Below are positions 29,915 through 61,454 of a stretch of 64,000 nucleotides of DNA, one piece after another. Below the pieces are notes generated by a model. It was not told where the DNA came from. It ran no database searches and was given only the letters and a program-made list of their open reading frames with translations. The DNA lies in NCBI GenBank assembly GCA_038093975.1, contig JBBPTG010000022.1:181017-245016 (forward strand). The letters run 5' to 3'. The position numbers were made by a program, and so were the translations under genes. The first letter of the stretch is position 1. Each line of letters starts with the position of its first letter. The stretch comes from Chalciporus piperatus. Its lineage: Eukaryota; Basidiomycota; Agaricomycetes; Boletales; Boletaceae.

Positions 29915-30301
29915 GAAGGATGTTCGATTCCACAAGCTTTTCTTTTCTTCTCTCTCGATCCTGCATTCTGTCCTTTTGCCTGCACATATGTCCTTCGTTG
30001 GCACGCTGTCCGGTGTTAGAGTACGTCCAATGTTTTAGTATGTCCGCATTTCTACAACAAACGTTGAGATGGGATCGAGGTGGGTGTTCGGTCTGCTGAC
30101 CGGTTAGTTGCCTTGAATGGATGAGTGACCGGCGATGCCCGTAGCGTTACTCGGAGCGTTACTGTGATAAAGGAGGGCATTGCCATTTGGTCACGGCTTA
30201 GTGACTCGCCCATCCTCCTCCTCTCCTCACCATCGCAGCAACCTCCTCTACAGCGTCCCAGATTTACGTCGATAAAGTCCCAGTTTAAATCAGAACCGAA
30301 G

Positions 30302-32809
30302 ATGGACGACGACGTCGAGTATCTCGGTACCAAGTTTGCGCCCCATACACCCCTGGGCGACCCCTGCGAACCCCAGGCATCCGTAGCCGGCATGTCGCCT
30401 TTGTACATCAGCCTCGAGGATGCTGCTCACCTCGCTCATCCCGTAGGAATCACCCTCCATGTCGAGAAATGCGGCGAGAGACCCGCTCATAAACTCGCCT
30501 TTTACCGCGCCCGCTCAGGCTATGTGAACATCGGTCGGAAATCAGGATCCGATGATAAGTCAATGAGAAGAGAAAACGACGATCGCAACGTCGTATTCGC
30601 GTGCCAGGTCGTCAGCGCGAGGCATGCCAAACTTGTCCTTTCGGACAGTGGTCAGGTATCATTCTCGTACCCACTCTCTCCGAGCGCTTTAAGCTTAATG
30701 GGGGTAAAAATCCCATTATTAGGTCTATGTCGTTGATCTTCATTCACGACATGGAACTCATCTCTTACGCCGTGGCGAAGAAACGGCGAGAACGCTCAAG
30801 GCCGAAGTCGAAACCGCTCTTGCCGATGGCGACGTTCTTACCTTTGGCAAGACGGTCGGCGCTGGCTCATATCTTGTTTCCCCAGTGACCGTCCGCGTCG
30901 AGTTACTCAAGGGTCGCTCGTCTTCAGAGGCCCCTGTTTCTTCTGACCGCGCGCTGACTCCCATCAGTTCTTTGAGTCATCATGTATTCTCTAGCACACG
31001 TAAGCTGAGCTCGGGTCGCTACGGTCTCTTTGTTCCTCCGTGTGTGGAGTCAGATTCCGCCCACTCTTCTACTTCCTCCATCGAGGTCGCTTCAGATGCT
31101 TCATCCTCCTCCTCCTCCTCGGCCTCCGAGCATGAATCGGACGTCGAAGACGATCCGTTCCACGTACCTTCCGTCGTTCGTGATAGTAGTCCAGGCAAGA
31201 ACGCCATCAAGATCCCGACGTTCCGCAGTTTCATGAGAGAGATGTATAACAAGGCTGGCTCTCATTCGCCTCCTATCATCACTGACGACGCGGATGAACC
31301 CGTCGAAATCGTTGCTCCTGGCTCGCCCTCGGATGCGTATGCGGGTAGCCAGCCTTCTCCTGTCGTGGTGGTCATTGACACTGCTTCCAAATCTCGCTCT
31401 CATTCGCCCATGGAGCTCTCTACGCCTTCTCCTTCGCCTCCATCTGAGGCTCAGCACTCGGACCCTGCCATCATCGGTGCATGGCCTTCTTCCAGACCAC
31501 AGTCTCGCCATTCCTCATTGGAAGTTGAAGTGGCGAACTCGGAGACGGCTCAAGATCCCGAGCCGGCAGTGCCGGCGCCGGCGCCAACTCCTGCTCAACC
31601 CTCTACCAGCCAGAATAGCCAGAACAGGATCCCAGTCATGTCCGAGCACAATTCGATGGGGATAAGCTTGCTTCCGCCACCTAATCGCTATCCGTATCCG
31701 TATAGCCCCGGGCCGTTCAGTAATTCCATCGCATCTGACTTTGGGCTTCCTCCGTCGATCCAACCGCCTCCGTCATCTGCGCGTATGCTTCCGTTCTACC
31801 CTCCTTACAAGGCATTGGTCGATCGTGCTAGCTCCGAACTCAAGGCGTCCATCAAGAGCATCGAGGTATGTATTTCCAATTGCCATGACGTATGTTTTTG
31901 CTAATTCTTGACCCCTCCCAGGACCGCATCACAACCATGCAAGAGAGCGTCGATGATCTCAAATCGCGGCAGTCCGTGACTGAAGAAGATATGATCGACC
32001 TCCAGAGCCACGTCGACATGCTCGAGCCCGAATCGGAGAGGCTGCTCTGCCGCATGAACGGAGCGGAGCGCAACATTGCGTCGTTGTCGCTGCTTCATGG
32101 GTCGGTGAATAGTTTGCGTAATAGGTTGGATGCGCCGGACCAGTCGAAGCCGCAGGAGGCGTCTTTGTCGGATGTGAAAGCGTGTGCTGAGGCGTTGAGC
32201 AACTTGGTTTCTGGTACGTGATCATTTATGTTTGTCTTGCTTGGTCTGGTGGCTGACATGTGTTTTTGCAGAGATGAAGTCGTTGAGAGAGGATGTCGAG
32301 AAGCGGATAGAAGAGAAAATGGATGCTATGAAGGCTGCTCGCAGTGAAGCGTTTGATGTGCTGAAAGAAGTGACCAAGGAGGCCGAGGTTGGTTTTCGCG
32401 TTGATTGATTCGAGACCTGTCTGACTTGGGTCGTTTGCAGTCTATCAGGGCGTTGAAACGGAAGCGCGAGGAAGACGAGGAAGAGGTCGAGCAAGAATCG
32501 GAGCGACAAGATGAACAGGACGAGGAACCACGGGAGCATCAGGTCGAGGAACCACGGGAACATCAGGTCGATGCGCCAGACGTAGACATGGATGAACCCA
32601 TCCGCAGCCCAACACCTATCGTCGACAACGTAGACATGCCTCTTCCCGCCCCCGCCCCCTTCCTCGTTCCCGTTCCCAAAGTCAAACGTGAGGCAGTGAG
32701 CCCTCCTCCCAGGAAGCGCGCTCGGACTGCAATGTTCACCGTCGTGCACACCGCTGCCGCCATGGCGGTCGGTGCTGCTGCGACATGGTCTGCTCTCGCA
32801 TTCGCCTAA
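30302..32809 (+). CDS. FHA-domain protein with hydrophobic C-terminal tail
   Basis: Phosphothreonine-binding adaptor of unknown partner. Five exons (30302-30655, 30723-31865, 31922-32213, 32272-32387, 32441-32809) join in frame to 757 aa. The FHA domain spans about residues 50-185: GYVNIGRKSG, FACQVVSARHAKLVL, then across the intron VYVVDLHSRHGTHLLRRGEE, with the usual Arg, Ser-His and Asn-position elements (here His-Gly). A Ser/Pro-rich middle follows. Residues about 490-620 look like coiled coil, then an acidic Glu/Gln tract. The last 25 residues (TVVHTAAAMAVGAAATWSAL) are hydrophobic after the basic PRKRARTAM, suggesting a tail anchor. The layout FHA, coiled coil, tail anchor resembles SLMAP/Far9-type STRIPAK subunits, but sequence similarity was not tested. 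Confidence 0.85.
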
Positions 32810-33394
32810 GCATCAAGTTCAGTCATTCGCCTTTCAACAATCAATCAATCACGACGAGATCACAACAAACACGATGATCACAACAACACGGCTAGGAAGC
32901 AAGACGGTGGAACTCGAATTCCATGGGCTTGCGCATAATTTCTTCTCCCATTTCGCTTCTCTTTCCTCTCTTTTCTCTCTCCCAGATGAGGTGTATGTAC
33001 TGTAAATCGTTTCTTTTTTTCTTTTTCCTTTTTCTGTTGTTTCAGTTAGTCGCTCGTGGTTGGAGCGTGTACAGTGGCACGGTAGCTGTAGCATCTACGG
33101 CCGATGTAGGATGTGGTGAGGTCGTGACGAGCAATGTATGTTGTATGTATTCTTTGGACAATTGTTTTCGTCCAGCTTCCAAGTTCCAGAGTTTCAAGTT
33201 TTCACCGCTGTCGTCCGATTTCCCGGGGACGGGAGAGACTCTGATTATCCTTCAAGCACCCTGATGACTCCGCCGCCCCCGCCAACGATATCACCCCGCA
33301 GTCCATGACGGAACCACCGCGGATAGCTAAGGGTGTGAATGTTGATTAGTGCGTATGCGCGACTGCAACTTGAAGTGCTTAAGGTCGACCGTAG
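32810..33394. other. Intergenic region, no supported gene
   Basis: This is the 3' region of the FHA gene up to the start of the duplicated block. It has CT-rich stretches (around 32940-33050). I see no coding or RNA gene. Confidence 0.5.
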
Positions 33395-33621
33395 GCTTTA
33401 CCACTTGTTCCCAGTTCCCTTGATATCAAAACAGGTGGCATACGTTGTCAATCACATCAGTCATCAAGTACATCGGTTATCAAGTACATCAGGTACGGGT
33501 TACAGTAACGGAGAGCATATATTCTTGTACAACTAGCGTGATAGGTAAGCGATCCAGCAGCTCCCCTGGTAAAAGTGAGGTATTCACCTTGTATTCTGCG
33601 GAGGTAGACTCTTCGAGGAAG
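33395..33621. repeat. Duplicated 3' flank of deaminase, copy 1
   Basis: About 200 bp that recur at 37145-37340, e.g. CCACTTGTTCCCAGTTCC, ATCAAAACAGGTGG and TTATCAAGTACATCAGGT. It marks the left edge of the tandem deaminase/NLR duplication and includes short internal repeats of a CATCAAGTACATC type. Confidence 0.75.
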
Positions 33622-35243
33622 TCACCTATAAAATAACTTCACAAACTTAGGGCCCCTCTCGTCCCCACTCCTCGAGCCACCGCTGGTGTCAGATCCCCCA
33701 CTGTTGCTTCGTTTCCGCACCGCCTGTTCTAACAGAGCCTCGAGGTCTGTCTTCACCTTCTCCCGGATGATCTCAACGACTTCATCTCCGAATGGACCAT
33801 GCGGAATAAGCCATGCAGGATAGAATTTGCGCGAACACCCCGACAGTGACCACTGGGGATGGCCAGGTGCCGGACTGCGACAGACTGCGCTAATATATTC
33901 GCCGCACGGAAAGCACATTAATTTGCTGACACCGATCTTGTCGCCCATAACAGGGATATGGTGCTGAGCCAAGTACTCGACGAGCTGAATCTCGCAGTGA
34001 AGACGAGGATCGACCTTAGCGTGCCAGACGTTCTGCATCTCTTGTTGGGACTCTTGATCATCGACGAGATCATCAGAGAGGTTGTACTGCTCTAGCAACT
34101 GTTGGAAACGTTCCTGCGGGGTGTTTGGCCATAGGTATGCCGGCCAGGCCGCGGGTAAGGCTGCATAATTGTCGGCAACCCATACGATATTAAAACCCAC
34201 TCCGGTCTCAAGGTAGGATTGAAGGTTTTTCCCAAGAACTTTTGCGAACGTCGGGAATGCGACCGACTCCAGTAACAATGCATCCTCAACATAACGCGCC
34301 ACACGCCACAGCCTGCGCTTGAGCTTCCGAAGCCAAAGCACTTCCTCCCAGGTGAAGTGCGCCAGGACTGTGGGCTCGCCGATATCCTTGAAGAATTTGG
34401 TGCATACCACCACCCTCGCTTGGGTCGAAAAACGCAGGGCATCCGACCCTTGGCTCGTCCCGCCCAAGTATATCTTCTCCGATCTTTTTGTCTTTTTTAA
34501 GAGACTGGAGTGAAGTTGGTTGAAGAGGAAAATGAGGGTCGTGCTGCCATCGGTATCGGCCGTGGGTCTCTGTGGATGGTCTGGGAAAATGTCGCAAGCC
34601 GCCGCGAAGAAGTCTTTGTCTTCCTGCACCGCAATGGCAGTCCCAACTCGTTTCTTGACTAGTTCTTCAAATCGAACATGGACGGGGACGCGAGGTGATT
34701 GGGCCTTTCCGATTATTGGTTTCATGTCCCTTAACCCTTCCAGTTTCCGTACCAACCTCGCGGTCGTGAATTCCATAACACAGTCGACGAGAGAAGCGAT
34801 TGGATTCGATTGATTCTCGTGGAATTGACACACGCTAGTGCGAAACTCCTCCAGGAATCGCAGGGCAAAAGCTCTGTCAGCTGGTTCTGGTAGCCCACGA
34901 TTGGCTGCGAGATAGAGGGTAATGATGCCGGGGGTGGTGGAGAGCGCTGCGGCTACGACATCGCCCCTGCTCTCCCGCACGAAAGCGGTCGCAAGCCAGT
35001 TGAGAAGGCGCAACGGTTTGTCATGGGCGCTCTTTGGGAACTCCATAGAGCGCTCGTGGTCGGAGAGGGGATCCTTCCGAGTGCGAATGAACTGCAGCAA
35101 GGCAAGGTTTCCCATGATCTCCATCTGGGGGTCCTGCGTCAAAATGTAAGTTGATCCGTTCAGAATATGGGCCAGACAGTGACCCTGTACACCAATCGTC
35201 TACGCACCGTCCATGGCAAATTCTGGGGTACCGATGTTTGCAT
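33622..35243 (-). CDS. OTT_1508-like nucleic-acid deaminase, copy A (intact)
   Basis: Predicted zinc-dependent deaminase. Exon 2 (35133-33622) carries 504 codons. Exon 1 (35243-35208) adds MQTSVPQNLPWT, giving 515 aa. The C-terminal domain holds the metal site: DPRLHCEIQLVEYL supplies His and the catalytic Glu (His near residue 390), and IGVSKLMCFPCGEYI supplies the two Cys. IGVSK before Cys-x-x-Cys is typical of the OTT_1508 deaminase family (PF14441) in fungi. The roughly 380-residue N-terminal part, shared with copy B, is not recognised. The tail has SNSGGSDTSGGSR. The ATG used in copy B is TTG here, so I chose an in-frame ATG upstream. It is divergent from the NLR pseudogene at 35548. The substrate is unknown. 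Confidence 0.8.
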
Positions 35244-35547
35244 CGTATAGATCAGTTACATAAGATTGTGGCGGGACGGTTTCACTTGGCAACCGGGCCA
35301 GCGATGATGCGGTCACAACCATCATTTTCACATGATCCCTCGTCCATGCGGAGTCAGACCCCAGAACCCAATCCCGTGGACGTGGAGGGACTATTCCATC
35401 GAAAACAATGTCGAGCGTCTCCTGGGTTCGAGCTTCAAGTTTTCGCCACGGGGGGAAGATTATCTTCAAGTTCAAGCGCCTTGGACACTCTCCTGCCGCG
35501 CCGATGAGATATCCGAGGTTGGCCACGAGCAAATACCTCGCAGTACC

Positions 35548-36835
35548 ATGGAATCGCTGATGCGATAACTAAGGACGAACAACCCCGAAAGCCTATATCT
35601 CCGGCGAATCGGCGTTGCCTCTCAAGCCCTTCTTGAGACGCTTAACAGTGCATCCGTCCTTGGGAATCGACTCATCCAGTGGGTACGTGGAAGAGCTAGT
35701 AGTCGGATCGGCGCCCAAACGACTCGGAGGACTGGCTGGGACTTGAACTCGGACTCGGAGTGCAGAATTTGTTTCGTCCAGCCATGTCTCCGCCGATGAA
35801 AACGAGGATCAACGAGGCGCGTATTTGATCCTTTTGAAGCGCAAGGATTGTTTTCATTTCTTGACTGAACCGCGTGTTCGGTGAGTTTCGCTCGGACTCG
35901 GAGTTTTGTCGCGAGGATGATAAAGCCGGGGACAAGGGTTTGGTGTAGGAATCGGGAATAGGATGTTCACCAGCAACCAGGAGCAGTTCGGGCTAGTCCT
36001 GGGGCTGAATAAGTGGAGGGTGCTCTCTGGAGAGAAGATCAGCAAAGGATCGAGTAAGCATCAAGATATCGTGATGGCACGGACAGATCTTACATGCCTG
36101 CCTCTACAGTGCTATGAACCGAACCAGGCAACGAACGGATGGCTGGCAGCGGCCAGAGGATGCGTGGAATCGATCGTATGTATTCCTGAACTTCAGGTAG
36201 ATACTCTCTTAATCTTACTGATGAAAAGTATTGCAATGGCTCGATGGTCTGAATTGCAGGGAAAACCGAGAAAACACCCACGATCTCCGCCAGCCGAATA
36301 TCCGTACGTGGTTATTGAAAATGGGTGCTTACAAGACCTGGAGAGATGGAGAGAAATCATTTCTGTGGCTTAATGGGAAACGTAAGCTTGCGAATGTATT
36401 CCACTTTATTCAGTTACCGACGACTATCATCCCAGCGGATTCTGGAAAATCGGTAATGGCGTACGTGAATCGCGGGCAATATTCGGCTCATGCTAACCTT
36501 GATCGAAGCGCGGCCGTGATCGAGGACCTCAAGAGTACGCTACAAGAAGACGAAACCCTGGTATACTTCTTTTGCGATTTTCGAAATGAGCGGTCTACGA
36601 GCGCTGCGTGAACGATGCGTTCGCTGCTTTGGCCCCACGTTGCATCAAGAAGTGGGTACATCCGTGTTGTGGAGTACCTGCGCTCTCTTGGATTTGAACG
36701 GAGCACCTATCGTTCGGGTTCATCTAGGCAAGGCGGCTAATGCACACGCCTTGTCCTCTGAAGGGAACAATGCGCTACATATTGCCATCCGGGGGACACT
36801 GGCACCTCTGACTCGGGTCTAGAGACTGTAAGATC
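35548..36835 (+). pseudogene. NACHT-ankyrin gene, copy A, internally deleted pseudogene
   Basis: Colinear with the intact NACHT-ankyrin gene at 39367-44725 but broken. After ATG a deletion brings a stop at codon 7. The P-loop exon reads GKPDSGKS instead of GKPGAGKS. At about 36625 the sequence jumps from the start of the NACHT domain (copy B near 40548) straight to an ankyrin repeat (copy B near 43090), so about 2.5 kb are missing. A second gap of about 50 bp follows. The remnant ends at 36835, and the next 130 bp match the 3' flank of the intact copy (44793-44940). Confidence 0.88.
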
Positions 36836-37349
36836 CATCCGTCCCCTTTTGAATGAAAGTCTTGAGAGTGGATTTCGTTCTCTGCACAACTGCTTCAGAT
36901 GTTATACTTCCTTTGTCTGTTCCCCAAGTTGGTATCATTGATGTACCTTTCCCTGTATCAGACTTTCCATATGTTCCTGGACTCCGTAAGAGCGTCACGG
37001 TACATATTCTTGATTCTTTGTACAATCAAGTCCACATATTTGAATTTGCGACCCACATTGGGTGTTGAAAGGTTGATGCATGATGCATGACGAGTCGCTA
37101 ACGCGATGCAACTAAGGTGTGATTTCAATGCTCACGACTAGGCTTGACCACTTGTTCCCAGTTCCATTACTATCAAAACAGGTGGTATACGTTATGAATC
37201 ACACCAGTTATCAAGTACATCAGGTGCGGGTCAACCTTGGTAGCTACGGGGATGAAGAGGATATGTTGTACAACACTAGTTGTAGGTGAGCGATGCAATT
37301 CCCCATGTAAAAGGGAAGCACTCACCTGGCATTCCGCGTGAGTACTTGG
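36836..37349. repeat. Inter-unit spacer with duplicated flanks
   Basis: 36840-36970 repeats the 3' flank of the intact NLR gene (TTTTGAATG...AGTCTTGAGAG, ATGTACCTTTCCCTGTATCA). 37145-37340 repeats the 3' flank of deaminase copy A. The junction of unit 1 and unit 2 lies between them, near 37040-37140. No gene. Confidence 0.75.
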
Positions 37350-38968
37350 TCACTCCGACCAAGTTGGCCCAAAGTCGTCATCATCGTCGATGTCAGTGGG
37401 ACTGCGGGGTTGCGCAGTCCTCGAGCCACCGCTAGTGTCAGATCCCCCACTGTTGCTTCGTTTCCGCCGAGCCTGTTCAAGCATAACCCTGAGATCTTCC
37501 CCCACCTTCGCTCGGATGATCTGAACGACTTGAGTTCCTCGCGGATCATCCGGAACAAGCCATCCCGCAAAGGATTTGTTCGAACACCCCGAGACTACCC
37601 ATCGTGCGGATCCCCGATCGCTATTGACTCGATCAAGATATTCGCTGCACGGATAGCACGACAGCTTGCTGACACCGACCATGTTCCTTATAATATTGAT
37701 GTTCTCCCGTTCCAAGTAGTTGACGAGCTGAATCTCGCAGTGAAGTCGAACCTCGACTTTCTCCTGCCAGAGATCCTTGACGCCTTCCATGAAGTCTGCG
37801 TCATCGAGGAGTTCGTCGGAGACCTTGTGGTGCTCTAACAGCTGTCGAAAACGTGGAAGCGGAGGACCTGGCCATTTATACGGTGGCCACTGGTAGGCGT
37901 CCCATTGATAAACATTGGGTAAAGCCGTATGATCGTCGCCAACCCATACAATATTGAAACCCTCTCCGTTAGCGAGGAAGCTCGGAAGTTTGTCCCCAAG
38001 AACTTTTTGGAACATCGGGAATGCGTCCGACTGCAGCAAGGCTGCATCGACGACATAGTGCGCGACGCGCCACAGCCTGCGCTTGAGCTTCCGAAGCCAA
38101 AACACTTCCTCCATGGTGAAGTCTTCCGTGGGCTTGGTGATAGCCTTGAAGAAGTTGGCGCTTGCCACCCGCTTCGCTAAGACTGCAAAAGACAGGGCCT
38201 CGAGTGCACGGCTCTCCGGTTTAAAGACGAACTTTTCAGGTTTTTTTGTCTTTTTTTTGATACTGGAGAGAAGTTGAATGAAGAGGAAAATGAGGGTTGC
38301 GCGTCCGTCGGGATCGGATTTGGGACGGGCTGGATGGTTTTGGAAGGACTTATGAGCGAAATTGACCAAGACTTTGTCTTCAACCACCGGAGTGTTAGAC
38401 TGAGTTGGCCTGGTGACTAGGGCGGAAAATCGAGCCCCGACGTCGTGGGGTGAAGTATCCGTTGCGGATAGCCGTTTCATGTCCTTTATCATGTCCAGCT
38501 TCTTGATGAACCTCTCCGACGTGAACTCCATAACACATTGGAGGAGAGGGTTCTTCGACCTTGGGTCATTACGCATGAATTTATCCATGCTAACGCGAAG
38601 CTGCTGCAGGAATTGATCCCCAAAAGCTTTGTCTTCAGCTGTTGGTCGCCCGCGATTCGCTGCGAGATACAGAGTGACGGAACCATGCGTGGTGGCGAGA
38701 GCTGCGGCGACAGTATCGCCCCTGTCCTCCCGCACGAAAGCGGTGGAAATCCAGTCAAGCAGGCGCTGAATCTTCTTGTCGTTGCTCTCCGGGAACCCCA
38801 TAGACAACTCATGAGCGGGGAGGGGATCCTTCCGAGTGTGCATGAATTGCAGGAAGGCGAGGTTTCCCATGGTATCCATTTGTTGGTCCTGCCAGTGTTC
38901 ACAGATGTCAGTTGATCCGTTCGGGATGATGGGGCAGACACCAATCGTCTACGCACCGACCATGGCAT
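37350..38968 (-). CDS. OTT_1508-like nucleic-acid deaminase, copy B (intact)
   Basis: Paralogue of copy A. Exon 1 (38968-38957, MPWS) and exon 2 (38888-37350) give 516 aa. An in-frame stop lies upstream of the ATG, so this start is well placed. The zinc/catalytic motifs are VRLHCEIQLVNYLE and VGVSKLSCYPCSEYL. Shared with copy A are the N-terminal block MGNLAFLQFMHTRKDPL, the central WLRKLKRRLWRVAHYV, the segment GFNIVWVGDDHTALP and the low-complexity tail SNSGGSDTSGGSR; this copy then ends in an acidic tail (DIDDDDDFGP). It is head to head with the NACHT-ankyrin gene, start codons about 400 bp apart, which suggests co-regulation. Family experience says nucleic acid or nucleotide deamination; the target is unknown. 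Confidence 0.85.
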
Positions 38969-39366
38969 GGTGATAGTGGTGGACGATGGGGATTCCTTGC
39001 CAGTAAGTCGTCCCGTCAGCTACGTTGAGATCATCTCATGGCATTATCTTGGACACGTACCGCTGTATGCATTCTATAGATTTAGTTGATATAGTAGGTA
39101 AATCGATCTGGTTATCAAGACATTGGAGGGCTTCGAGGGTTCGACGCGATGCTGATCATGGCTGTCAAGTTCAGGACACGGCGGTCCCACGACCTGATCA
39201 CAGCCTTCTACTTCAAGTTCTTGGCACAACTGGTTTTGATGAGCTCTTCGATTTCCCTGGGACGGGGGAGACTATTAGTTTGCTAGTATCTCCAAGCGCT
39301 GGTTGCACAGCCCGAAGACTTCCCCGCCAACGAGGTTGGGCACGAGAAAATACCTCGCGAACCACC
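38969..39366. promoter_or_regulatory. Divergent promoter region of deaminase B and NACHT-ankyrin gene
   Basis: 398 bp between the two start codons. It is partly conserved in unit 1 and unit 3 (ACCGCTGTATGCATTC, ACATTGGAGGGCTTCGAGGG), so both promoters duplicated with the genes. It contains a tRNA-Glu fragment at 39155-39204. Confidence 0.6.
39155..39204 (+). pseudogene. tRNA-Glu fragment (anticodon arm and intron)
   Basis: CATGGCTGTC...TTCAGGACACGG...CACGACCTGATCACAGC matches positions 46329-46370 of the intact tRNA-Glu gene, with two small insertions. The acceptor and T arms are missing, so it cannot make a tRNA. Confidence 0.75.
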
Positions 39367-42300
39367 ATGGAATCACTGCAGAAGACACTCATCAGTATTG
39401 CATCTGTATCACAGGGAGTCGCTAATGCGATAGCTAAACACGCTGGGACGAACAGCCCCGAAACTCTACAGCTCCAGCGAATCGTTGTTGCCTCCCAAGC
39501 CCTTCTCGAAACACTCAACAGAGCATCCGTCTTCGGGGAATCTATCCTCGATGATCGACTCGTCCACTGGTTATCGACCAAAGAACCTGGAATGTGTTTG
39601 GAGACGTTGCTTCGAATGGAAGAGCTAGTCGGATTAACGCCCAAACGGGGGGTGGTGGAACTTGGACTCGGAGTGCAGAGTTTGTTTCGTGCAGCCATGT
39701 CTCCGCCGATGAAAACGAAGATCAATGAGGCGTATTTGATCTTTTTGAAGCGCAGGGATTGTTTTCATTTCTTGACTGAACCGCGTATTTGGTGAGTTTC
39801 ACTCGACTCGGGGTTTAGTCACGAGGGTCTGACGGCGAGGGTTTGATGTAGGAATCGGGAACAGGGAGTTCACCAACAACCAGGAGCCGGGCGGGCTAGT
39901 CCTGGGACTGAAGGAGAAGTGGGGGGTGCTCCCTGGCGAGAGAATCAACGAAAGGTCGACTCCGTCGAGTAAGCATCGAGATATCGTGATGACACAAACG
40001 AGATCTTATGAGCCTACCTCGACAGTGCTATGAACCGAACCAGGCAAAAGACGCGTGGGATTGATCGTATGTACATCTCAAGTTGATACTCTCTTAATCT
40101 TACTGACGATCGCCTTCGACAGTACAGAAAATGGAATCGTCATTGCAATGGCTCGATGGACTAAACTGCAGGGAAAAACAAGAAAATACCCATGATCTCC
40201 GCCAGCCGGATACCTGTACGTGGTTATTGAAAATGCGTGCTTACAAGACCTGGAGAGACGGAGAGAGATCGTTTCTGTGGCTTAATGGGAAACGTAGGTT
40301 TGGGAATGTATTTCAGTTTATTCAGTTACTGACGACTATCATCTCAGCGGGTGCTGGAAAATCGGTAATGGCGTACGTGTGGATCGCGGACATCACTCGG
40401 CTCATGCTAACCTTGGTCCAAGCGCCGCCGTGATGGAGGACCTCAAGAGCTCGCTACAAGAAGACGAGACCCTGGCATATTTCTTCTGCGATTTCCGAAA
40501 CGAGCGGTCCACGAGCGCTGCGGGAGCGATGCGTTCGCTGCTTTGGCAACTGCTGAAACAGCTTCATGGCCAGAACGTTTATCCCAGAGAACTACTCGAC
40601 AATCTTGTTGAGGAGAAGGACGGAGGCGCTTCAACCCTTACCAATGCCAAACGCCTCGCTCGTCATGTATCTCGCGCCATCAAGCAATTCCCCCGATCCC
40701 CTATTGTCGTTATAGACGCCCTTGATGAATGCGAAAAGGTCGAGGAACTTCTCAACGCGCTCGCCGAGCTACGAAATGACAGGATTCGACTCTTCGTCAC
40801 GAGCCGACCATTGGAGGTCATCAAAGACAGCTTCTCGAAGCTTCCTTTGATCTCCATGGACGACATGAAATACGAGCTGTTGTCCGATATAAGGCTGCAC
40901 GTCACTAGAGAACTGGACTCTCACCGACGGCTGAGAAATATGGATTCCAGCTTCAAGGACGTGATCCGGAACAAACTTTGCGATAGGGCTGATGGAATGT
41001 GAGTGATATGTCACTTTATCATCGATGTCACCCTCCTCACCACTTTGCTATAGGTTCCGTTGGGTTCAGTGTCAGATCGAAACCTTGAAAGCCTGTGCGA
41101 CAGTGTCAAACGTTCGGAAAGCAATGGATAGTCTCCCATATGGGCTCGAGGAAACGTACACGAGGATTCTTCGCGCAATTGACAAGGAGAGTTCGGAAGG
41201 AAGATTGGCGTTACGTGCCTTGGTCTGGCTTGTTGCTGCCCTCCGACCCCTCAAATTGAAGGAGATCGTTGAGGGTCTCACGATCAATCTTCAGCAACGA
41301 ACGCTGGACCGCGAAATCGGCCCCATGCATGGACCTGTCTTGTTGGATGCGTTGGGCAGTCTTGTGACACACGACGAAGAGACGGACATCGTGATACTCT
41401 CCCATTTCAGTGTCAAGGTAAATTTCAGTGCTTTCTTTGCTTGCATTTGGGGGTTAACGACTCATTGGCGATGTAGGAGTACCTTATCGGAGCAACCACC
41501 CGCACGGAGATGCCCACATATCATATCAACCCTGAACATGCTCATGGACAACTGGCCCAGTTCTGCATGTGTTATATCAGCGTCTGCCTTAGATCAATGG
41601 AGCACTCCACTGGTGGAAAGGCACGTCATATCCGACCTTCCCATTCCAACAACGCAGTAGTGTCACATCCCCTCCGCCATTACTGGATGTCACTCTCCCA
41701 ATCGTGGCCACTTCTCCCTTACGTTTTCCTCTACGGTTTCCAGCATCTCACGCACGTTGGGCGGGGGCAAATTGTCGTGGTGTCAGCCATCACCTCTTTG
41801 GCCGCAGATGTGCAAGCAAACCTCTTGGAGTGGGAACGTCTGTACACAGAGCGAAGTCATCACGTGACTCTGTTGCATCGTCATCATCCTCCCGATTGGC
41901 CAATTGCACGAGATGACTTCGTGCCCTACGTCCTTGTTTGCTTTGCTTCAGAGCCTCTCTTACGCACCTCCTTTACCCGCATTTCCTTCAAGTCCAGGGA
42001 TGGTACGAACCCACTTGTCTGGGCTGCGTACTTGGGCAAGGTCGAGCATTCCAAGGCTTTGTTTTCGCGAGGCGCGAAATTGAGCCATACGGCTCGGTAT
42101 CCCGACTCATTCCGAGTCAAAAGTCACGCCCTGCCACTTGAGGCTGCTGTTCTTTCCCAGAACAGTGTCCTCGTCGATTTCTTCCTGGATCAAGGAAGCC
42201 CTATACCCCAAACATTATTTAAGGATATCGTTATTGATCACGATCACCCTCAGTACCATGGTTATATTGTCACCAGGCTGATACAGACGGATGAGTTCGT

Positions 42301-44725
42301 GGAATGGGCAACTAACGTCCCAAGGGAAGATTTACTTCGAGGCGCACTCCGATATTACCACGCAGTGGAATTGTGGATCCCAACCGGGGAGGAGATGGTC
42401 ACCAGGAGAAGGAGGTTGACGCAGATTGGCTGTGACCTGTCTGCTCACGACTCGCTCAAGGAAAGACATCTCCGCAAATCCGCTTCTGTAGGACATGTTT
42501 CCGAAGTTGAAAACATGCTTTCCCAGATACACGCGCCACTGCCCCATGATATCATTCTTGATGCATCACATAGTGCACAATCTAATCCAGAAATCATACG
42601 CCTCGTCCTCCGCAAAGGATGCGATCCTTTCGCTACTTCAACCGATGAAAACACTGCATTTCATATTGTCATTGGCTCTTGCGTCTCGGAAGACGACTGT
42701 CTCGAGAGCATCGAAATCCTCATCGATGCAGGTTGCGACCCCTCCGTACCCAATTTAGCCGATATAACACCTGTTCACACCGCCGCTCGGCGCGGATACA
42801 TATCTGTTGTCGAGCGCTTACTCTGTCTGGGTGCATTGTTACCATCAAATGTTTTGCTCGCCGCGGCGGCGGCCCCATGGCCCGCAAAAAGGGCACCGAC
42901 GATCCTTTTGTTGTGTCGGATGGGGGCTGATATTCACGCAGTTGCACCCAATGGTGACACTGTCCTTCACCTTGCCTTGGAGCATTTGGGAGAAGGCTTC
43001 GAAGCCGACTGTCTGGAGAGCGCCCAATTCCTCATTGAATCTGGGTGTAGCCCTCTTGCATCCAATTCTTTGCGCGAAACTCCCCTTCACGTTGCAGCAA
43101 GAAGTGGGTACATCCTGGTTGTGGAGTACCTGCTCTCTCTTGGTATTCCATTACCTTCTCACGTCTTGCTCGCTGCGTCCCGCATTCGGCACTCGAACGG
43201 AGTACCTATGATTCGGTTTCTTCTAGGCAAGGGGGCCGATGTGCACGTCTCGTCCTCTGAAGGGGACAATGCGCTACATATTGCCATCCCGGGGACCACT
43301 GCCACCTCCGAGTCGGGTCTAGAGATTGTGAGAACACTCATCCGTGCTGGCTGCGACCCCTGCATGCGCAATTCTGCTGGGGAAACACCATTTCACCTTG
43401 CAGCTCGATATGGGTGCATTGGTATCATGGAGTATCTCCTTTCGCGAGGCACCCCCTTCCCTTCGGATATCATTTTTACTGTTAATCACTCCAGGTCTTC
43501 AGAACTTGAACTACCCACCTTGCGCTTCCTTATTGAGAGGGGTGCTGACGTACGGGCTGTCTCAGCCAACGGAGACACAGTACTCCATCTCGTGGCAAGA
43601 TGCGGTTCTATGGAGCTGGCTCGACTTCTCATTGAGGGTGGTTGCAGTCATCATACGCTCAACTCATCACGCGAGACACCCTTGCACATTGCTGCACTCT
43701 ACGGACACATTTCCATGGTCGAATATTTGGTTTCACTTGATGCAACAATTCCTCCTGATATATTACTTGCTGCATCAGGTCGATCCTCCAGGTTAGACTT
43801 ACCGAAAGCGCCAGTGATCAATTTTTTCCTTGACAAGGGAGCTGGCATAGATGTTGCCACAGCCGATGGGAAGACTCCATTGCATTGCCTGCTCAACTCC
43901 CAATTGTGGATATCTCCCTCTATGATCGAGGACGATGATGTGGAAAGCATTAAAATCCTTTATAATGCTGGATGCAAACTGGATGACCGGGATGCAGATG
44001 GAAGGACATTGATGCAAGCTGTGGTGCGATGCAGTCACATTCCCGTCATGGAGTATCTTCTATCTCAAGATGTACCACTTCCCCCCGATATTTTGCTTGC
44101 TTTCGGGTCAGGAGCATTCCCAACTCGGGGCCTAGCAGCAACGGTTCGATTCCTCATCAGCAAGGGTGCTGATGTGCATGCTGCTGCACGCAACGGGGAT
44201 ACTGTGCTCCACCTAGTTCTTGCGAGTGCGGCCTCTTGGGACGATTACCTGGAGTGTGCAACGCTCCTTGTCAACTTAGGATGCAAGCCTTCTGTATGCA
44301 ATCTGGCTGGCGAGACACCCCTTCATGTGGCAACACGGAATTGTCCACTCTCTGTTGTCAAGTATCTACTCTTGCAATGCGCATCCCTCCCCTCGAACAT
44401 CTTACTTTCCGCCGGGCGAGCCGGGGATACAAGGCCGGAGATGTTTCGGTTCCTGATTCGCGAGGGAGCCGATGTGCATGCCACTGTTACATCCGATGGG
44501 AATACCCCACTCCATCTCGTTTTATTGCTCGACTTCAAGCAGGAGTATCAGGCTATCCGGCGGTGGGAGGTCGTTCAGATCTTGCTCAAGTCGGGCTGTG
44601 ACCCCTCAGCAATGAATATGGAGGGACAGACATCCTTTGATCTCGCAGAAGCGAAGGGCCCTTGCTTCAAGCAGAATTTCCTGCGCTTAGTGGACTCTTG
44701 CCGCATCTCCACCGACGGCCGGTGA
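39367..44725 (+). CDS. NACHT-ankyrin NLR-like receptor
   Basis: STAND NTPase of the fungal NLR type, usually a sensor of non-self or danger. Eight exons (39367-39791, 39852-39968, 40026-40066, 40123-40293, 40348-40372, 40423-40998, 41054-41417, 41477-44725) join in frame to 1655 aa. The N-terminal 180 residues are helical and have no nameable effector domain. NACHT: TCTWLLKMRAYKTW, Walker A LWLNGKPGAGKSVMA (split by an intron at the loop), YFFCDFRNERSTSA, Walker B IVVIDALDECEK, sensor RLFVTSRPLE, then DGMFRWVQCQIETLK and SLPYGLEETYTRIL. From residue about 890 to the end come ankyrin-type repeats in a composite ~103-aa period, seven copies. The gene is divergent from deaminase B. Confidence 0.92.
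42430..44640 (+). repeat. Seven composite ankyrin units of about 103 aa
   Basis: Each unit reads roughly ETPLHVAAR-GYI-VVEYLLS-G-LPS-ILLAA, a spacer of 8-15 aa, a second helix pair RFLL-KGADVHA---NGDTVLHL, then ESA-LI-SGCDPS-N. The units are divergent from each other, so they are not a very recent amplification. Confidence 0.85.
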
Positions 44726-44937
44726 AATCCTCAATCATGGTATGAAGTGGTCAGTCTGTTGGTTGGAAAATTATTGATGATTATCTACACAGGCGCCCTT
44801 TTGAATGGAAGTCTTGAGAGCGGTTTTCGTTTTCCGCACAACCGCACCAGATGTTATATTTCCTTTGTCTGTTCAACTTATACACACCAAGTTGCTATGT
44901 TCCATTGATGTACCTTTCCCTGTATCATACTATCCAT

Positions 44938-45975
44938 AAGGAACAAGCCATGGAGCATAGAATTTGTGCGAACACCCCGAGACTACCCACTCGTCGGATG
45001 CCCGATCGTTATTGACTTGACCAAGATATTCGCTGCACGGATAACACATTAACTTGCTCCAGGTTCTCCATAACAATGATCTTCTCCCGTTCCAAGCAGT
45101 TGACGAGCTAAATCTCGCAGTGAAAGAGAGGTTTGACTGTCAGAGACCCTTGATGCCTTCCATGAAGTCTGCGTCATCGAGGAGTTCGTCAGAGACCTTG
45201 TGGTGCTTCAACAGCTATTGAAAACGTGGAAGCGGAGGGCCTGGCCATTGATGTGCCGGCCACTGGTAGGCGTCCCATTGATAAACCTTGGGTAAGGCCG
45301 CAGAATGATCGCCAACCCACACAATATTGAAATCTTCTCCGTTATCGAGAAGAAGTTCGGAAGTTTGTCCCCAAGAAGTCTTTCGAACATCGGGAATGCG
45401 ACCGACTGCAGCAAGTGTCCATCGTGAACATAGTGCGCCACGCGCCACAGCCTGCGCTTGAGCTTCCGAAGCCAAAGCACTTGCTCCGTGGTGAAGCATG
45501 CCGGGGCTGTGTGCTCGCCGATATCCCGGAAGAACTTGGTCCTTGCCACCCTCGCGATGACTGAAAAGCGAAGGGCCACCGATGCGTTGCTCGTCCCTAA
45601 GATCCACGCTGTCGATCTTTTTTTCTTTCTTCTGATACTGGAGAGAAGTTAGTTGAAGAGGAAAATGAGGGTAGCGCTGCCATTGGGATCGGTAACAGGA
45701 ATGGCCTTGTCGCCCCGGAACATTGCGAGAGTGTCTGCGTGCAAGTCTTTGTCTTCCTTCACCGCAAAGGAAGACCCGGCGCGCACGTTCTCGTCGTTGC
45801 TCTCCGGGAACCGAGGGGATCCTTCCAAGTGTGCATGAATTGTAGGAAGGCGAGGTTTCCCATGGTATCCATTTGTCGGTCCTGCCAGTGTTCAGATACG
45901 TCAGTTGATCCGTTCGGGATGACGGGGCAAACACTAATCGTCTACGCACCGACCATGGCAGGGTGATGGTCACGT
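44938..45975 (-). pseudogene. OTT_1508-like deaminase, copy C, decayed remnant
   Basis: Third copy of the deaminase. The C-terminal ~50 codons are absent: homology starts at the codons for the GWLVP region. The catalytic block reads HCEI followed by a stop where copies A and B have Gln. A large deletion removes most of the N-terminal half, joining sequence after LGRIPS to the middle. Several frameshifts occur. The start codon is CTG in the position of copy B's ATG. It cannot give a functional enzyme. Confidence 0.88.
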
Positions 45976-46307
45976 TGGACGATGGGGATTCCTTGGTAAG
46001 TCGTCCCGTCAGCTACGTCGAGACCATCTCACATTATCTTGGACACGTACCGCTGTATGCATTCTGTAGTAGGTTCAGTTGATATCTGGTTATTAAGACA
46101 TTGGAGGGCTTCGAGGGTCGAAGCGATGCTTGATACAAGTTGGCGACCAGATAATTCACGCTTATTCCCCAAAACACTGCGTGTGGCAAGCCGCGACGGC
46201 CCACCACTGAAATGACTGAAAGGCTAGAGAGTTTCAGTATATACAACCACAAGGCAACACCTAGACATTTCACAACAAAGTAAGGAAAACATGTATGCTT
46301 TCAAGTC

Positions 46308-46399
46308 GGATATGGTGTAACGGCTAACATGGCTGTCTTTCAGGACACGGTCGCACGACCTGATCACAGCAGCCCCGGGTTCGACTCCCGGTATCCGAA
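46308..46399 (+). tRNA. tRNA-Glu (anticodon UUC) with 22-nt intron
   Basis: A 7-bp acceptor stem TCGGATA/TATCCGA (46308-46314 with 46392-46398). T arm CCGGG-TTCGACT-CCCGG. Anticodon stem GCTGT/ACAGC. The loop CTTTCA-C gives anticodon TTC at 46339-46341. An intron lies at 46343-46364, one base 3' of the anticodon, the standard place. The D region GGTGTAACGGCTAAC is as in other fungal Glu tRNAs. It stands at the right end of the duplicated deaminase/NLR region. Confidence 0.9.
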
Positions 46400-46680
46400 A
46401 TTCTTTTTGCATCCTCGCAAGCTCGGTCAGCCGCTTTGCTACTGCAAAACTCATTTTGGTATTGTCGTCAACGGCAGCTTAAGTTCATCACTACTGTCAA
46501 TCACCCCCGGGGGCATGGCGAAAACGCTCTGAAGCAAGTCTCTGTCGTTCCAATCCTCACTCAATATCTAGAACCTATTCGAACCATGTTCACTTTCAAC
46601 CTTTCAGTCCTTCGCACTTCACACTACGTGCTCGCTCGTGTTTGGGGAAAACGAAGGAAGTGGATATATATTGATTACAA

Positions 46681-48981
<2,301 letters not shown>

Positions 48982-50670
48982 GGTGGGCAGAGGAACCTTG
49001 CCGAGTTAGTTCCGGTGTGCCCAGGGGACCCGCGTGAGCAGCTGTTGAGTTGCGCCCGTGTTGCAATCGTGTCAAGGCCGCGATTGGAAGAAACCCAACC
49101 TCCCAGGACAGAATAAAGTAGCACGGAAAACCGCTACTGGATGGGGGGAAGATCTTGTGCGGATCATCATGATGGTTGGGTTTTGTGACGGGGTGAAAAG
49201 GCGGGTAGGAATTCCCGGTGCCATTCCAAGCCATTCCAGGCTGTCAGTGACGGCTCGGCAGGACGAATTTGTGCCTCAACATGAGTCGCCAAGCCACACT
49301 GGTCAGACGGGAGCTTGAGGTAATATCAACAGAAAACCATACTCATTTCCCGAGATGAGTACTCTTTATGTCCTATTAGCACTTCATTCATCTCGCACAA
49401 GTCTCGGTTCTAGCTCGAACCAGTAGCTCGGAACATTCTGACGATCTCGGCCGAGGTACCTATGTACATCGTTAAAAAGTTTCGCTGTTCTCCATGGATT
49501 ATTATGTTCATCACAGCCACAGGTCGGTAGCTATTAACAAAATTTAACATAGGACACGTCAATGATCATAACACCCACAGGTCAGCTGCCAACGAACCGT
49601 TCCCAGTTCCGATGTATGTGATCACGAGACGAGCTGGAGAGACGAAAGAATGCAGACACAAGATTGACCTACTGGAAGGCGGAGAACTTGATTTTATATT
49701 GTCAGGGGCGCTCCAAATCAACTATCATCTTGCTTTTCCGAAGCGTCGTGTCCTGGAGGACGATTTGATGGTCATCAAATAATCTGCGGTGTCCCTCGTT
49801 TCGGTATATGGTCGCAATCGGACGACACGTACTTCCAGATATCAATATGAGAGGGGAAACCCTACACGGAGTCAGAGTTGCTGACTTGCTGTTAGCCATG
49901 TTCGGTCTGAGACAGACTCGAACCGAAAGTGTCGATACCTGCAACTGCAACTAGCCCCCACATACGCACCTCCACTCGGAATCTGATTAGATGACTTAAC
50001 TTTCTGGAATTCCAATATTCAAGACGGGTCAGCGCGACAGCGGACAGAAGGGTCTGCAAACAAATACAGTAACGTACTCGCCGGCTGCCGAATAGATCCG
50101 AAGCATGGGAACCGAAACAGGTCTGGCTTTGACTGGCTTCCCGTTTCACGCCAACTGAGCGCTCGAGTACTATATACAGGCCTGATGCGTGTTGTATTCC
50201 CCCAGTCAAATACAGAGGACCTGAACGTTGAACCACTCTGCGTGTTTGATTCTTCCATGTGACATACCTCAGCACGGAGAATCTACGTAGCACAGCACTC
50301 TTATATGTGAGCAACAATACTTTTAGAGTCGACCAAGAGGTAGGCACGATCCGGATCGGGAACACCCACCTCTCAGCCCATGTCCCACTTACTGGTCTCT
50401 GGGGTCTTTCTTCGGAGCTTGTAGTTATTTTTGAGCTGTTTTTGTCGAATTCGTGTTTGTGATAACAGAATGGATTATCTGGGTGGTATAATTCGTGCGT
50501 GTATGATAGATACCTAAGCTACTCGCTTTGAAACGAGAACTGCATGCAGTTCTCTTCGTGTCTGTTGAGAAGAAGCCAAGGATAGGGGAACACATGGTCA
50601 CGTGGATGGGGAATGCTAGACGGACGCGACGCGACGCGACTCGTGAACAGCCCGCTGCAACGGAGGGGGG
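48982..50670. other. 1.7-kb intergenic region, no supported gene
   Basis: It lies between divergent genes. Frames of 80-160 codons exist on both strands (e.g. 49892-50365, -) but have no motifs and no splice-consistent continuation. I see no repeats or tRNA. Confidence 0.5.
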
Positions 50671-58440: not shown

Positions 58441-59390
58441 CACTGCAAAAAGTCTGAAGTTACTGGAATGACTGGATCAGTTAAATCAGTAGTCCAGTGG
58501 CCCAGTAACAAGTAGTTTCAGTAGTTTCAGTAGTTTCAGTAACCTAGTCACCCAGTCATCAAGTAGTTTCAGTAGTCTTAGTAACCCAGTGGCCTAGTGG
58601 CCCAGTCATCCAGTCATTTCAGTAGCTTCAGTAGCTCAGTCATTCAGTCATCCAGTAGTCTCAGTAGTCTCAGTCATCCAGCAGCCCAGTCATCCAGTCA
58701 TCCAGTCATTTCAGTAGTCCCAGTAGCTCAGTCATCCAGTCATCCAGTCATTTCAGTGGTCTCATTAGTCCAGTGGCCAAGTGTTCCAGTTATCCAGTAG
58801 TTCCAGTAACCCAGCAGCCCAGTCATCAAGTCATCCAGTTACTTCAGTAGTCTCAGTAGCCCAGTCATTCAGTCATTCAGTCATCCAGTAGTTCCAGTAA
58901 CCCAGCATCCCAGTCATCCAGTCATCCAGTAGTTCCAGTAACCCAGCAGCCCAGTCATCCAATCATCCAGTCACTTCAGTAGTCTCAGTAGCTCAGTAGC
59001 CCAGTGTTCCAGTCATCCAGACATCTCAGTAGCCTAGTAGCTCAGTTTCCCAGTCATGTAGTCATCTCAGCAGCCTAGTAGCCCAGTGCCCTAGTCATCC
59101 AGCAATCCAGTTGTCTCATTACTCCAGCCATCCAGTATTCCAGTATTCCAGTAATCTAGTCACTCAGTGGTCCAGTAATCCAGTCACTCCAGTCACTCCA
59201 GTCAAGTCACACAAGTCACACAAGTCACTCCAGTAATCCAGTCACCTCAGTAATCCAGTCACTCCAGTAATCCAGTCATCCTGTGGTCCAGTAAACCAGT
59301 CACTTCAGTCACACCAGTCATACCAGTTATCCAGTTACCCAGCCCTCAGCTCACCCAATCACTCCAGTACTACTCAGTCATCTAATAGAG
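58441..59390. repeat. Left inverted arm: about 950 bp of ~10-bp CAGTcatC/CAGTagtt repeats
   Basis: A degenerate array of CAGTCATC, CAGTAGTTT, CAGTAACC and similar units. Blocks such as CCCAGTGTTCCAGTCATCCA and CAGCAGCCTAGTAGCCCAGT recur in the right arm in reverse orientation. It is longer than the right arm by local expansion of the repeats. Confidence 0.88.
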
Positions 59391-59504
59391 TCATTCTAAT
59401 TAGTGACATTTTATAATCATTCATAGGATGGATTATAGCTAAAGTCCACAAAAATGTGTACTAAAAGTGTAGTTAACAATGTGGGAAAGGGTATTAGGAT
59501 TGAG

Positions 59505-60060
59505 TGTAGTGAAGTGTACAAAAAAGCGTAGTAAAAGTGTAGTTACAAGTGTGGGAAAGTATAGCTAGATTGAGTGAGCAAAGTGTACAAAAAAGCGTAG
59601 TAAAAGTGTAGTCAAGAGTGTGGGAAAGTGTAGCTAGATTGAGTGTAGCAAAAGTGTACAAAAAAGCGTAGTAAAAGTGTAGTGAAATGTGTGGGAAAGT
59701 GTGTAGTGATAGAGTGTAGCTAAAGTGGACAAAAAAGTGTACTAAAAGTGTAGTTACAAGTGTAGTGATTGAGTGTAGCAAAGTGTAACCAAAAAGCGTA
59801 GTAAAACTTGAATCAAATGTGTAGGAAAGTGTAGCTAGATTGAGTGTAACAAAAGTGTACAAAAAAGCGTAGTAAATGTGTAGTTACAAGTGTGGGAAAG
59901 TGTATTAGGTTAGAGTGTAGCAAAAGTGTACAAAAAAGCGCAGTAAGTGTGTAGTTACAAGTGTAGCAAAGTATGTGGAGATCAAACCTATTGAAAGTGT
60001 ACAAAAAAGCATACACAAGTGTACAAAAAATATGGTAACTATCTAGTGTAGGAGATCCTA
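59505..60060. repeat. Tandem array, about eight copies of a ~70-bp unit
   Basis: The unit is roughly GAGTGTAGCAAAAGTGTAC, then AAAAAAGCGTAGTAAAAGTG, TAGTTACAAGTGTGGG and AAAGTGTAGCTAGATT. Copies differ by small indels. The frames read through it (e.g. Tyr/Thr/Leu-rich on the minus strand) are repeat artefacts. Confidence 0.88.
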
Positions 60061-60194
60061 ATAAAGTGTAGCCACATTTCCCTAATGCTCGGACTTGACA
60101 CAAAATCCGCGCGAAAAAGTCACGTGACCATGTTGAATTTGCCGCGCCACCTCTTCGACTCTCTCTCACCACTACACCACACCTCAACAACAAC

Positions 60195-60830
60195 AAAACG
60201 GCCGGCGAGGGCTCAAAAGCCCCGCCGGCATCGCCAGGTGAGTGAAAACTCGCTCACCACCATATCCGCTCACCTCGCAAACAGCCTGCTGCCACCTACC
60301 ACCTCACTCTCGACACGAAAACGACGAAAACGCGAAAACGCGGCCGGCGTGGGCTCAACAGCCCCGCCGGCTTCACGAGGTGAGTGATAAGCCACCTGCT
60401 CACCCCGCAAACAGCCGCTTGCACTGCTCGGCCCACTACCACCTACCACACCACTCTCGACACGAAAACGACGAAAACGCGAAAACGCGGCCGGCGTGGG
60501 CTCAACAGCCCCGCCGGCTTCACGAGGTGAGTGAGAACTCGCTCACCACCACATCCGCTCACCCCGCAAACAGCCGCTCGCACTGCGCGGCCCACTACCA
60601 CCTACCACACCACTCCCGACACGAAAACGACGAAAACGCGAAACGCGGCCGGCGTGGGCTCAACAGCCCCGCCGGCTTCACGAGGTGAGTGATAAGCCAC
60701 CTGCTCACCCCACAAACAGCTGCTCGCACTGCTCGGCCCGCTACCACCACTTCTCACCACCTCAAGCTCAAACAACGAAGCCGGCGCGGGCTCAACAGCC
60801 CCGCTGGCTTCAAAGGTTCGTGTTTATTTG
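60195..60830. repeat. GC-rich tandem array with a strong hairpin, five units of about 150 bp
   Basis: Each unit begins GCCGGCG-TGGGCT-CAAC-AGCCC-CGCCGGC, a near-perfect stem-loop (near 60201, 60343, 60490, 60648 and 60780). A second small inverted repeat GGTGAG...CTCACC follows, then CGCAAACAGCCGCTCGCACTG and repeats of CGAAAACG. It differs sharply in composition from the AT-rich arrays beside it. Confidence 0.88.
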
Positions 60831-60903
60831 TTGACTAACACACCTACTCACCTCGTACATAGCTGCTCGTTGTTATAGTATTTAAAAACTTTTCAAACTT
60901 TTG

Positions 60904-61400: not shown

Positions 61401-61454
61401 CATTTTCTGAACTGTCATAAGGTGTGAATTAATCATAAGATATAGTGAACTAGT

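What the first reader, a model, noticed from the sequence alone, without database searches (positions are those of the whole stretch)
33395..46140. Tandem triplication of a deaminase + NACHT-ankyrin (NLR) two-gene unit
Seen: a predicted zinc deaminase (HCE...CxxC) lies head to head with a NACHT-ankyrin NTPase, and this pair with its flanks occurs three times in the same orientation (complete, NLR-deleted, deaminase remnant). Family knowledge: NACHT-ankyrin proteins are fungal NLR-like receptors; OTT_1508-like deaminases belong to a fold with bacterial toxin and antiviral members. Inference: the two genes may form one defence or incompatibility module, with a sensor NTPase and a deaminase effector against viruses, transposons or non-self nuclei. 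Birth-and-death copies fit an arms race. I know of no description of this pairing.
Basis: partly seen in the sequence, partly recalled or inferred. Interest (0 to 1): 0.88.

Follow-up and report, generated by a model that had tools for sequence, protein, structure and literature searches.

The report
Duplicated fungal RNA-editor-like gene beside NLR
A fungus carries a tandemly duplicated gene for an OTT_1508-type deaminase, the enzyme family that elsewhere in fungi edits RNA during the response to viruses, lying head to head with an immune-receptor-like gene; the arrangement is real, but in this genome the two gene families were found together at this one place only, so a working partnership is possible but not shown.

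Summary
Three direct tandem copies lie at 33392-46370: A (intact deaminase, wrecked NLR), B (intact deaminase head to head with an intact 1655-aa NACHT/NPHP3_N-ankyrin NLR, 487 bp between start codons) and C (deaminase remnant plus part of the intergenic stretch; no NLR sequence found). Deaminases A and B keep HCE...CxxC and match PF14441.

Fungal OTT_1508-like deaminases (OLD) are reported to edit a UAG stop in the mRNA of a neighbouring zinc-finger gene (ZAO) during antiviral response in Neurospora, so asking about a cis-neighbour is sensible.

Tests here mostly weaken a two-gene module. Deaminases were found on eight contigs; only this one has a listed NLR or ankyrin match. Deaminase A is open although its NLR is dead. 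Six NLR loci sharing NLR B's N-terminus lie on contigs without a deaminase. The NLR B gene model needs no UAG correction. Deaminase and NLR show no shared motif. No C2H2 cluster was found near these deaminases. For pairing: random placement predicts about 0.03 such pairs within 2 kb, but the case was picked after the fact.

Best reading: a tandemly amplified OLD-family deaminase with an ordinary NLR carried along. An OLD-NLR editing module is not excluded. No other fungal genome could be searched.

The parts
33392..36971 (.). Unit A: deaminase A plus NLR A remnant with flanks
   Evidence: blastn self-comparison, matches to 37139-38967, 39331-39374, 39412-40547, 43088-43143, 43195-43345 and 44796-44938
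33622..35124 (-). Deaminase A, 500 aa, open, HCE...CxxC kept
   Evidence: PF14441 4.2e-12; alignment
35548..36842 (+). NLR A pseudogene: stop at codon 7, gaps that break the frame, most ankyrin repeats missing
   Evidence: A/B alignment, exon divergence 121/786 equals intron divergence 40/260
37139..44938 (.). Unit B: complete deaminase/NLR pair with flanks
37350..38879 (-). Deaminase B, 509 aa; catalytic domain about residues 379-444, H380-C-E382 and C408-x-x-C411
   Evidence: PF14441 6e-13; invariant columns among five aligned own-genome sequences, one of them partial
38880..39366 (.). 487-bp stretch between the two start codons of B (candidate shared promoter; not tested)
   Evidence: coordinates
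39367..44725 (+). NLR B, 8 exons (39367-39791, 39852-39968, 40026-40066, 40123-40293, 40348-40372, 40423-40998, 41054-41417, 41477-44725), 1655 aa: N-terminus without Pfam match, NPHP3_N/NACHT NTPase (GKPGAGKS, DALDE), weak WHD-like part, ankyrin repeats, stop TGA
   Evidence: hand-made GT-AG splice model without internal stop; Pfam; motifs
44934..46370 (.). Unit C: deaminase remnant and part of the intergenic stretch; no NLR
   Evidence: stops TGA, TAG, TAA inside two of the three deaminase pieces

Best explanation
The locus is a tandem segmental duplication kept mainly for a fungal OLD-type (OTT_1508-like) deaminase. The deaminase is most likely a zinc-dependent adenosine deaminase acting on mRNA, part of the response to viruses or non-self (inferred from the family). 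The head-to-head NACHT-ankyrin gene is an ordinary member of an NLR family that is expanded in this genome; it was next to the ancestral deaminase and was copied along. Today deaminases A and B are open, NLR B is intact, NLR A is dead and C has decayed. Shown: the three copies, intact catalytic residues, open frames, NLR A decay, no second pairing found in this genome. Inferred: editing activity, antiviral role, absence of functional coupling.
For: Deaminases were found on 8 contigs; of 35 NPHP3_N, 15 NACHT and 83 Ank_2 matches listed for the genome none lies on the other 7 (the tool calls such counts lower bounds); full NLR B finds nothing (tblastn, E up to 0.01) in 145.7 kb around them; 30 of 174 listed neighbour ORFs scanned against Pfam at E up to 0.01 show no NLR, ankyrin or C2H2 domain. 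NLR B's NTPase exon has relatives on other contigs at up to 50% identity, and six NLR loci share its N-terminus; none of these is on a deaminase contig. NLR A evolves as neutral DNA (exon 15.4%, intron 15.4%) while deaminase A has no stop in 500 codons (simulated chance of that at most 0.5%). No internal UAG in the NLR B model. Unrooted tree of 8 sequences (C84, C142, C336 not included): A with (B,C), apart from the others.
Against: A pair within 2 kb is expected only 0.03 times under uniform placement, 0.007 if divergent (post hoc). NLR B has stayed intact beside deaminase B. One NLR could serve both deaminases, so the loss in A does not refute coupling. Genome searches list lower bounds, and 144 of the 174 neighbour ORFs were not scanned. 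No RNA data and no other fungal genome were available.
Confidence: 0.52

Rival explanations
1. OLD-NLR module. As OLD edits the mRNA of its neighbour ZAO, deaminase B (and perhaps A) edits or controls its divergent neighbour NLR B, so that the receptor is fully made or changed only under virus attack; here the neighbour is a receptor in place of a transcription factor.
For: OLD deaminases are reported to act on genomic neighbours (PMC12754623, whole text); head-to-head with 487 bp between starts; random-placement expectation 0.03 pairs; both B genes open. Loosely: adenosine deaminases are among the genes raised in the non-self response of Podospora and Neurospora (PMC3689799, passages; the family is not named there as PF14441).
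Against: The NLR B model reads open without any UAG correction; single in-frame stops between long ORFs in the window and the deaminase neighbourhoods are UAG in only 7 of 29 cases; pairing found at 1 of 8 deaminase contigs.
Confidence: 0.27
2. het-S/nwd2-like pair: the NLR senses a signal and switches on the deaminase as a toxic or antiviral effector through direct contact.
For: Divergent NLR/effector pairs are an established fungal arrangement (PMC3321046, passages; PMC12881547, passages).
Against: Those pairs share a motif between effector and NLR N-terminus; the best match of deaminase A or B to NLR B is 20.0 bits against a median of 19.6 and a maximum of 25.0 for 50 shuffled NLRs. Seven other deaminase contigs carry no listed NLR match.
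Confidence: 0.1
3. The units are remains of a recombining multi-allelic block, in which the deaminase segment comes from old, long-kept alleles and the NLR segment from a more recent exchange.
For: A/B divergence is 448/1488 in the deaminase, with 119.5 of 340 synonymous sites differing, but only 161/1046 in the NLR 5' part (p 3e-14 for synonymous sites against NLR).
Against: No population data; gene conversion in the NLR part, or a different mutation rate, would give the same pattern. No inverted repeats of 60 bases or more in 30000-50000, so no sign of a mobile element with long terminal inverted repeats; shorter ones were not looked for.
Confidence: 0.11

Closest known systems
OLD-ZAO gene pairs (Honda et al. 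2025, not held; known here through PMC12754623, whole text, and PMC13327615, passages)
   Same: OTT_1508-like deaminase with HxE...CxxC motif, adjacent partner gene, duplicated pair
   Different: Partner is a NACHT-ankyrin NLR, not a C2H2 protein; no UAG premature stop in the partner model; no C2H2 cluster found near the deaminases examined in this genome
het-S/nwd2 and other fungal NLR/effector clusters (PMC3321046, passages)
   Same: Two divergent neighbouring genes, one a STAND receptor
   Different: No shared motif found between the two proteins; the partner is a deaminase; pairing not repeated within the genome
Fungal NACHT-ankyrin NLRs (PMC4986451, search listing only; PMC12258605, passages)
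   Same: NLR B looks like a standard member: NPHP3_N/NACHT, weak WHD-like part, ankyrin repeats
   Different: Nothing beyond its neighbour

Membership tests
OTT_1508-like deaminase (PF14441) | Match above the curated cut-off | tested here: met
   A 46.3 and B 49 bits against 27
OTT_1508-like deaminase (PF14441) | HxE and CxxC zinc/catalytic residues | tested here: met
   Invariant in 5 of 5 aligned own-genome sequences, one partial
OTT_1508-like deaminase (PF14441) | Deaminase activity on RNA | not testable with these tools
   No assay; two-sequence structure model too poor to use, pLDDT 35.6
OLD-ZAO module | C2H2 zinc-finger gene next to the deaminase | tested here: not met
   No two C2H2 motifs within 300 bases in one frame in the window or in 145.7 kb around the other deaminases; 10 single motif matches in all. 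Nearest listed PF00096 matches on deaminase contigs about 34 kb (C52) and 57 kb (C32) away (150 of 156 candidates scored)
OLD-ZAO module | Editable UAG premature stop in the partner mRNA | tested here: not met
   NLR B model open over 1655 codons with 7 GT-AG introns; the three introns of a length divisible by 3 hold in-frame UGA, UAA and UGA, or no stop, by eye. No RNA data
Fungal NLR (NACHT-ankyrin) | P-loop NTPase with NPHP3_N/NACHT match plus repeats | tested here: met
   PF24883 2.9e-22, Ank_2 4e-76; GKPGAGKS, DALDE
het-S/nwd2-type pair | Shared motif between effector and NLR N-terminus | tested here: not met
   Best match 20.0 bits, within shuffles; a degenerate short motif could escape blastp

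The most novel reading that the evidence does not exclude
An OLD-type RNA editor has been wired to an immune receptor: deaminase B acts in cis on the divergent NLR B transcript, or both are co-induced from one shared promoter, giving an editing-controlled receptor module in a basidiomycete-like fungus, with deaminase A as a second editor.
Probability: 0.22. Interest if true: 0.82.

Novelty: new member of a known kind. Interest (0 to 1): 0.42.

Why it matters
If coupled, it would extend 'RNA editing of genomic neighbours' from transcription factors to receptors and would give a plain test: look for A-to-I changes in the NLR mRNA. If not coupled, it still shows an expansion of an antiviral-type RNA-editor family, with two kept tandem copies, in a fungus that is probably outside the ascomycetes in which the family was worked out.

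Tried and rejected
Homologues elsewhere: protein search with deaminase B (none of 7996 scored candidates at E up to 1e-3) and with a five-row alignment (none of 7997 at 0.01); prokaryote genome contigs (24 pattern matches, none confirmed); viral contigs (25 pattern matches, none confirmed); solved structures (best E 0.34). No relatives came back, so no synteny test in other species.

UAG correction: rejected for the NLR B model. A conserved AUG-GNN-GGU-GCG-UAG-ACG string ahead of the deaminases in A, B and C was folded: z-scores B -0.14, A 1.12, C 0.24 (the C piece was cut two bases after the UAG). Refolded with like borders, the UAG lies in a stem in B and C and the A fold differs; no loop position as reported for OLD sites. 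A short upstream ORF or an intron donor is as likely.

Positive selection: omega 0.78 overall, 1.15-1.58 in codon windows 101-250, not significant.

Structures: NLR N-terminus pLDDT 46.5 and deaminase 35.6: too poor, no fold search made. The N-terminal exon of NLR B gave no Pfam family, pieces of four relatives none at E up to 0.1.

Literature: Iyer et al. 2011 and Honda et al. 2025 are not held; both are known through PMC12754623. No paper on a deaminase-NACHT pair was seen in the listings of searches (17 listed 20 of 40 papers, 70 8 of 15, 76 8 of 19). PMC12881547 and PMC12258605 hold the word deaminase 0 times.
Full report
WHAT IS THERE. The window is the last 64 kb of a 245-kb contig (C22) in a 35.47-Mb genome of 484 contigs. 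It looks fungal, probably a basidiomycete: modelled introns of 50-60 bases and a Plavaka transposase beside one deaminase (the link of Plavaka to Agaricomycetes is recalled, no call). A blastn of 32000-48000 against itself shows three direct collinear copies. A is 33392-36971, B is 37139-44938, C is 44934-46370. A matches B over the deaminase and its 3' flank, the NLR 5' part, two ankyrin fragments and the NLR 3' flank. C matches B from inside the deaminase to B 39204, that is into the intergenic stretch, and no NLR sequence was found in it.

THE DEAMINASES. A (33622-35124, minus, 500 aa) and B (37350-38879, minus, 509 aa) match PF14441 at 46.3 and 49 bits, cut-off 27. His-Cys-Glu and Cys-x-x-Cys are invariant in five aligned sequences from this genome, one of them partial. 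A and B are 53% identical; dN 0.37, dS 0.47, ratio 0.78. pN is below pS (p 0.038), and 112 random substitutions would leave either frame free of stops in at most 0.5% of simulations, so both are probably kept by selection. Codons 101-250 have nominal ratios of 1.15-1.58, not significant (p 0.25). C has stops in two of its three pieces. An unrooted tree of 8 sequences puts A beside (B,C), apart from five other deaminases of the genome. The PF14441 matches on C84 and C142 were not found with the full deaminase B protein and so are more distant kin; they and C336 are not in the tree.

THE NLR. A hand-made splice model for B joins 8 exons with 7 GT-AG introns into 1655 codons without internal stop. 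The product has an NPHP3_N/NACHT NTPase (GKPGAGKS, DALDE), a weak WHD-like match (PF22939, 18.5 bits, under its cut-off of 27) and a long ankyrin block. NLR A is a pseudogene: its frame ends at codon 7, and exon and intron positions have diverged from B equally (121/786 and 40/260, both 15.4%).

IS THE PAIRING MORE THAN CHANCE? PF14441 finds 10 places on 7 contigs; the full deaminase B protein adds one contig, C107, and a fragment at C222:32970: 8 contigs in all. PF24883 has 35 listed places, PF05729 15, Ank_2 83, the NLR B NTPase exon 17. The only contig they share with a deaminase is the window's own. I fetched 145.7 kb around the other seven: full-length NLR B gave no tblastn match at E up to 0.01, and 30 of the 174 ORFs listed there showed PMT, MIR, SCO1, condensin, IBR, transglutaminase and Plavaka families above cut-off, some matches under cut-off (F-box-like, HEAT, PDS5, New_glue, VPR, AhpC-TSA, RING), or nothing, but no NLR, ankyrin or C2H2. 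Six NLR loci outside this place share NLR B's N-terminus, and four more match only its NTPase start; none is on a deaminase contig. On the other side, with 8 deaminase places and 33 NLR places (the 35 rows less the two in this cluster, not corrected for genes hit twice) set at random, only 0.03 pairs within 2 kb are expected, 0.007 if divergent. That is against pure chance, but the case was chosen because it looked striking, and both families may gather in fast-changing regions. Copying of the pair as a unit is no separate evidence, because a tandem duplication copies any neighbour.

WHAT THE FAMILY DOES ELSEWHERE. PMC12754623 (whole text read) reports Honda et al. [quoted passage not shown] OLD changes UAG to UIG in the zao mRNA so that full-length ZAO is made; [quoted passage not shown] PMC11169179 (passages) shows that the stop in the Fusarium homologue CHE1 misled gene callers, which put in a small false intron. 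I therefore looked at the NLR B introns: four have lengths not divisible by 3; the others hold, in frame, UGA (39792-39851), UAA and UGA (39969-40025) or no stop (40294-40347), read by eye. So the NLR B model has no UAG correction site of the ZAO kind. Among 29 single stops between long same-frame ORFs in the window and around the other deaminases, 7 are UAG (one of them the deaminase A leader), 3 UAA and 19 UGA: no excess of UAG. No cluster of C2H2 motifs was found in the window or in these neighbourhoods, only 10 single motif matches.

OTHER MODELS. het-S and nwd2 are divergent neighbours that share a motif (PMC3321046, 12 of 32 passages). Deaminase A or B against NLR B gives at best 20.0 bits; 50 shuffled NLRs give a median of 19.6 and a maximum of 25.0. 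Co-retention speaks against coupling in unit A, where the enzyme is open and the receptor dead; it does not refute it, since NLR B could serve both. In favour of a non-self role in general, PMC3689799 (passages) reports adenosine deaminases raised in the incompatibility response of Podospora and Neurospora, family not named as PF14441.

AN ODDITY. A and B differ by 448/1488 in the deaminase and by 35% at synonymous sites, but by 161/1046 in the NLR 5' part (p 3e-14 for synonymous sites against the NLR). One duplication date does not fit both. Gene conversion in the NLR part, or old deaminase alleles brought together by recombination, would explain it; I could not decide.

VERDICT. The reading as a sensor/effector module is possible but not favoured by tests inside this genome. 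The likeliest account is a kept tandem expansion of an OLD-type editor with an ordinary NLR beside it. The bold reading, an editor wired to a receptor, stays open at about one in five and is directly testable by RNA sequencing.

Noticed in passing
window 35200-35214, 38949-38963, 45942-45956 (minus): ATG-GNN-GGT-GCG-TAG-ACG stands ahead of the deaminase start in all three copies, although A and B differ by 30% in the gene; it may be a short upstream ORF, an intron donor or, least likely, an editable stop in the deaminase's own mRNA. The UAG does not fall in a predicted hairpin loop in B or C.
   Followed up: partly
units A and B, 33392-36971 and 37139-44938: Deaminase synonymous sites differ by 35% but the NLR 5' part by 15%: two different ages inside one duplication.
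   Followed up: partly
own genome C52:76829-78208 and C336:14995-16293: Two similar deaminase copies with stops: a shared TGA where the C222 and C32 copies have Trp, a TAG in C52 where C336 has Trp, and a TAG and a TAA in C336 where C52 has Gln. Decay, perhaps by C-to-T changes.
   Followed up: partly
own genome C222:11305-14823: Two deaminases lie head to head with each other.
   Followed up: no
own genome C222 and C142: Deaminases on two contigs lie near exons with mannosyltransferase-type domains: MIR on C222, PMT and MIR on C142; chance or an old duplicated block.
   Followed up: no
window 40294-40347: The 54-base modelled intron inside the NLR B P-loop is in frame and without stop; keeping it would insert 18 residues into the Walker A motif.
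   Followed up: no
deaminase C-termini: A tail like NSGGSDxSGGSR recurs, in variants, in A, B, C32 and one C222 deaminase, 4 of 5 aligned sequences.
   Followed up: no
window 58486-61889: Large arrays of short degenerate tandem repeats near the contig end.
   Followed up: no
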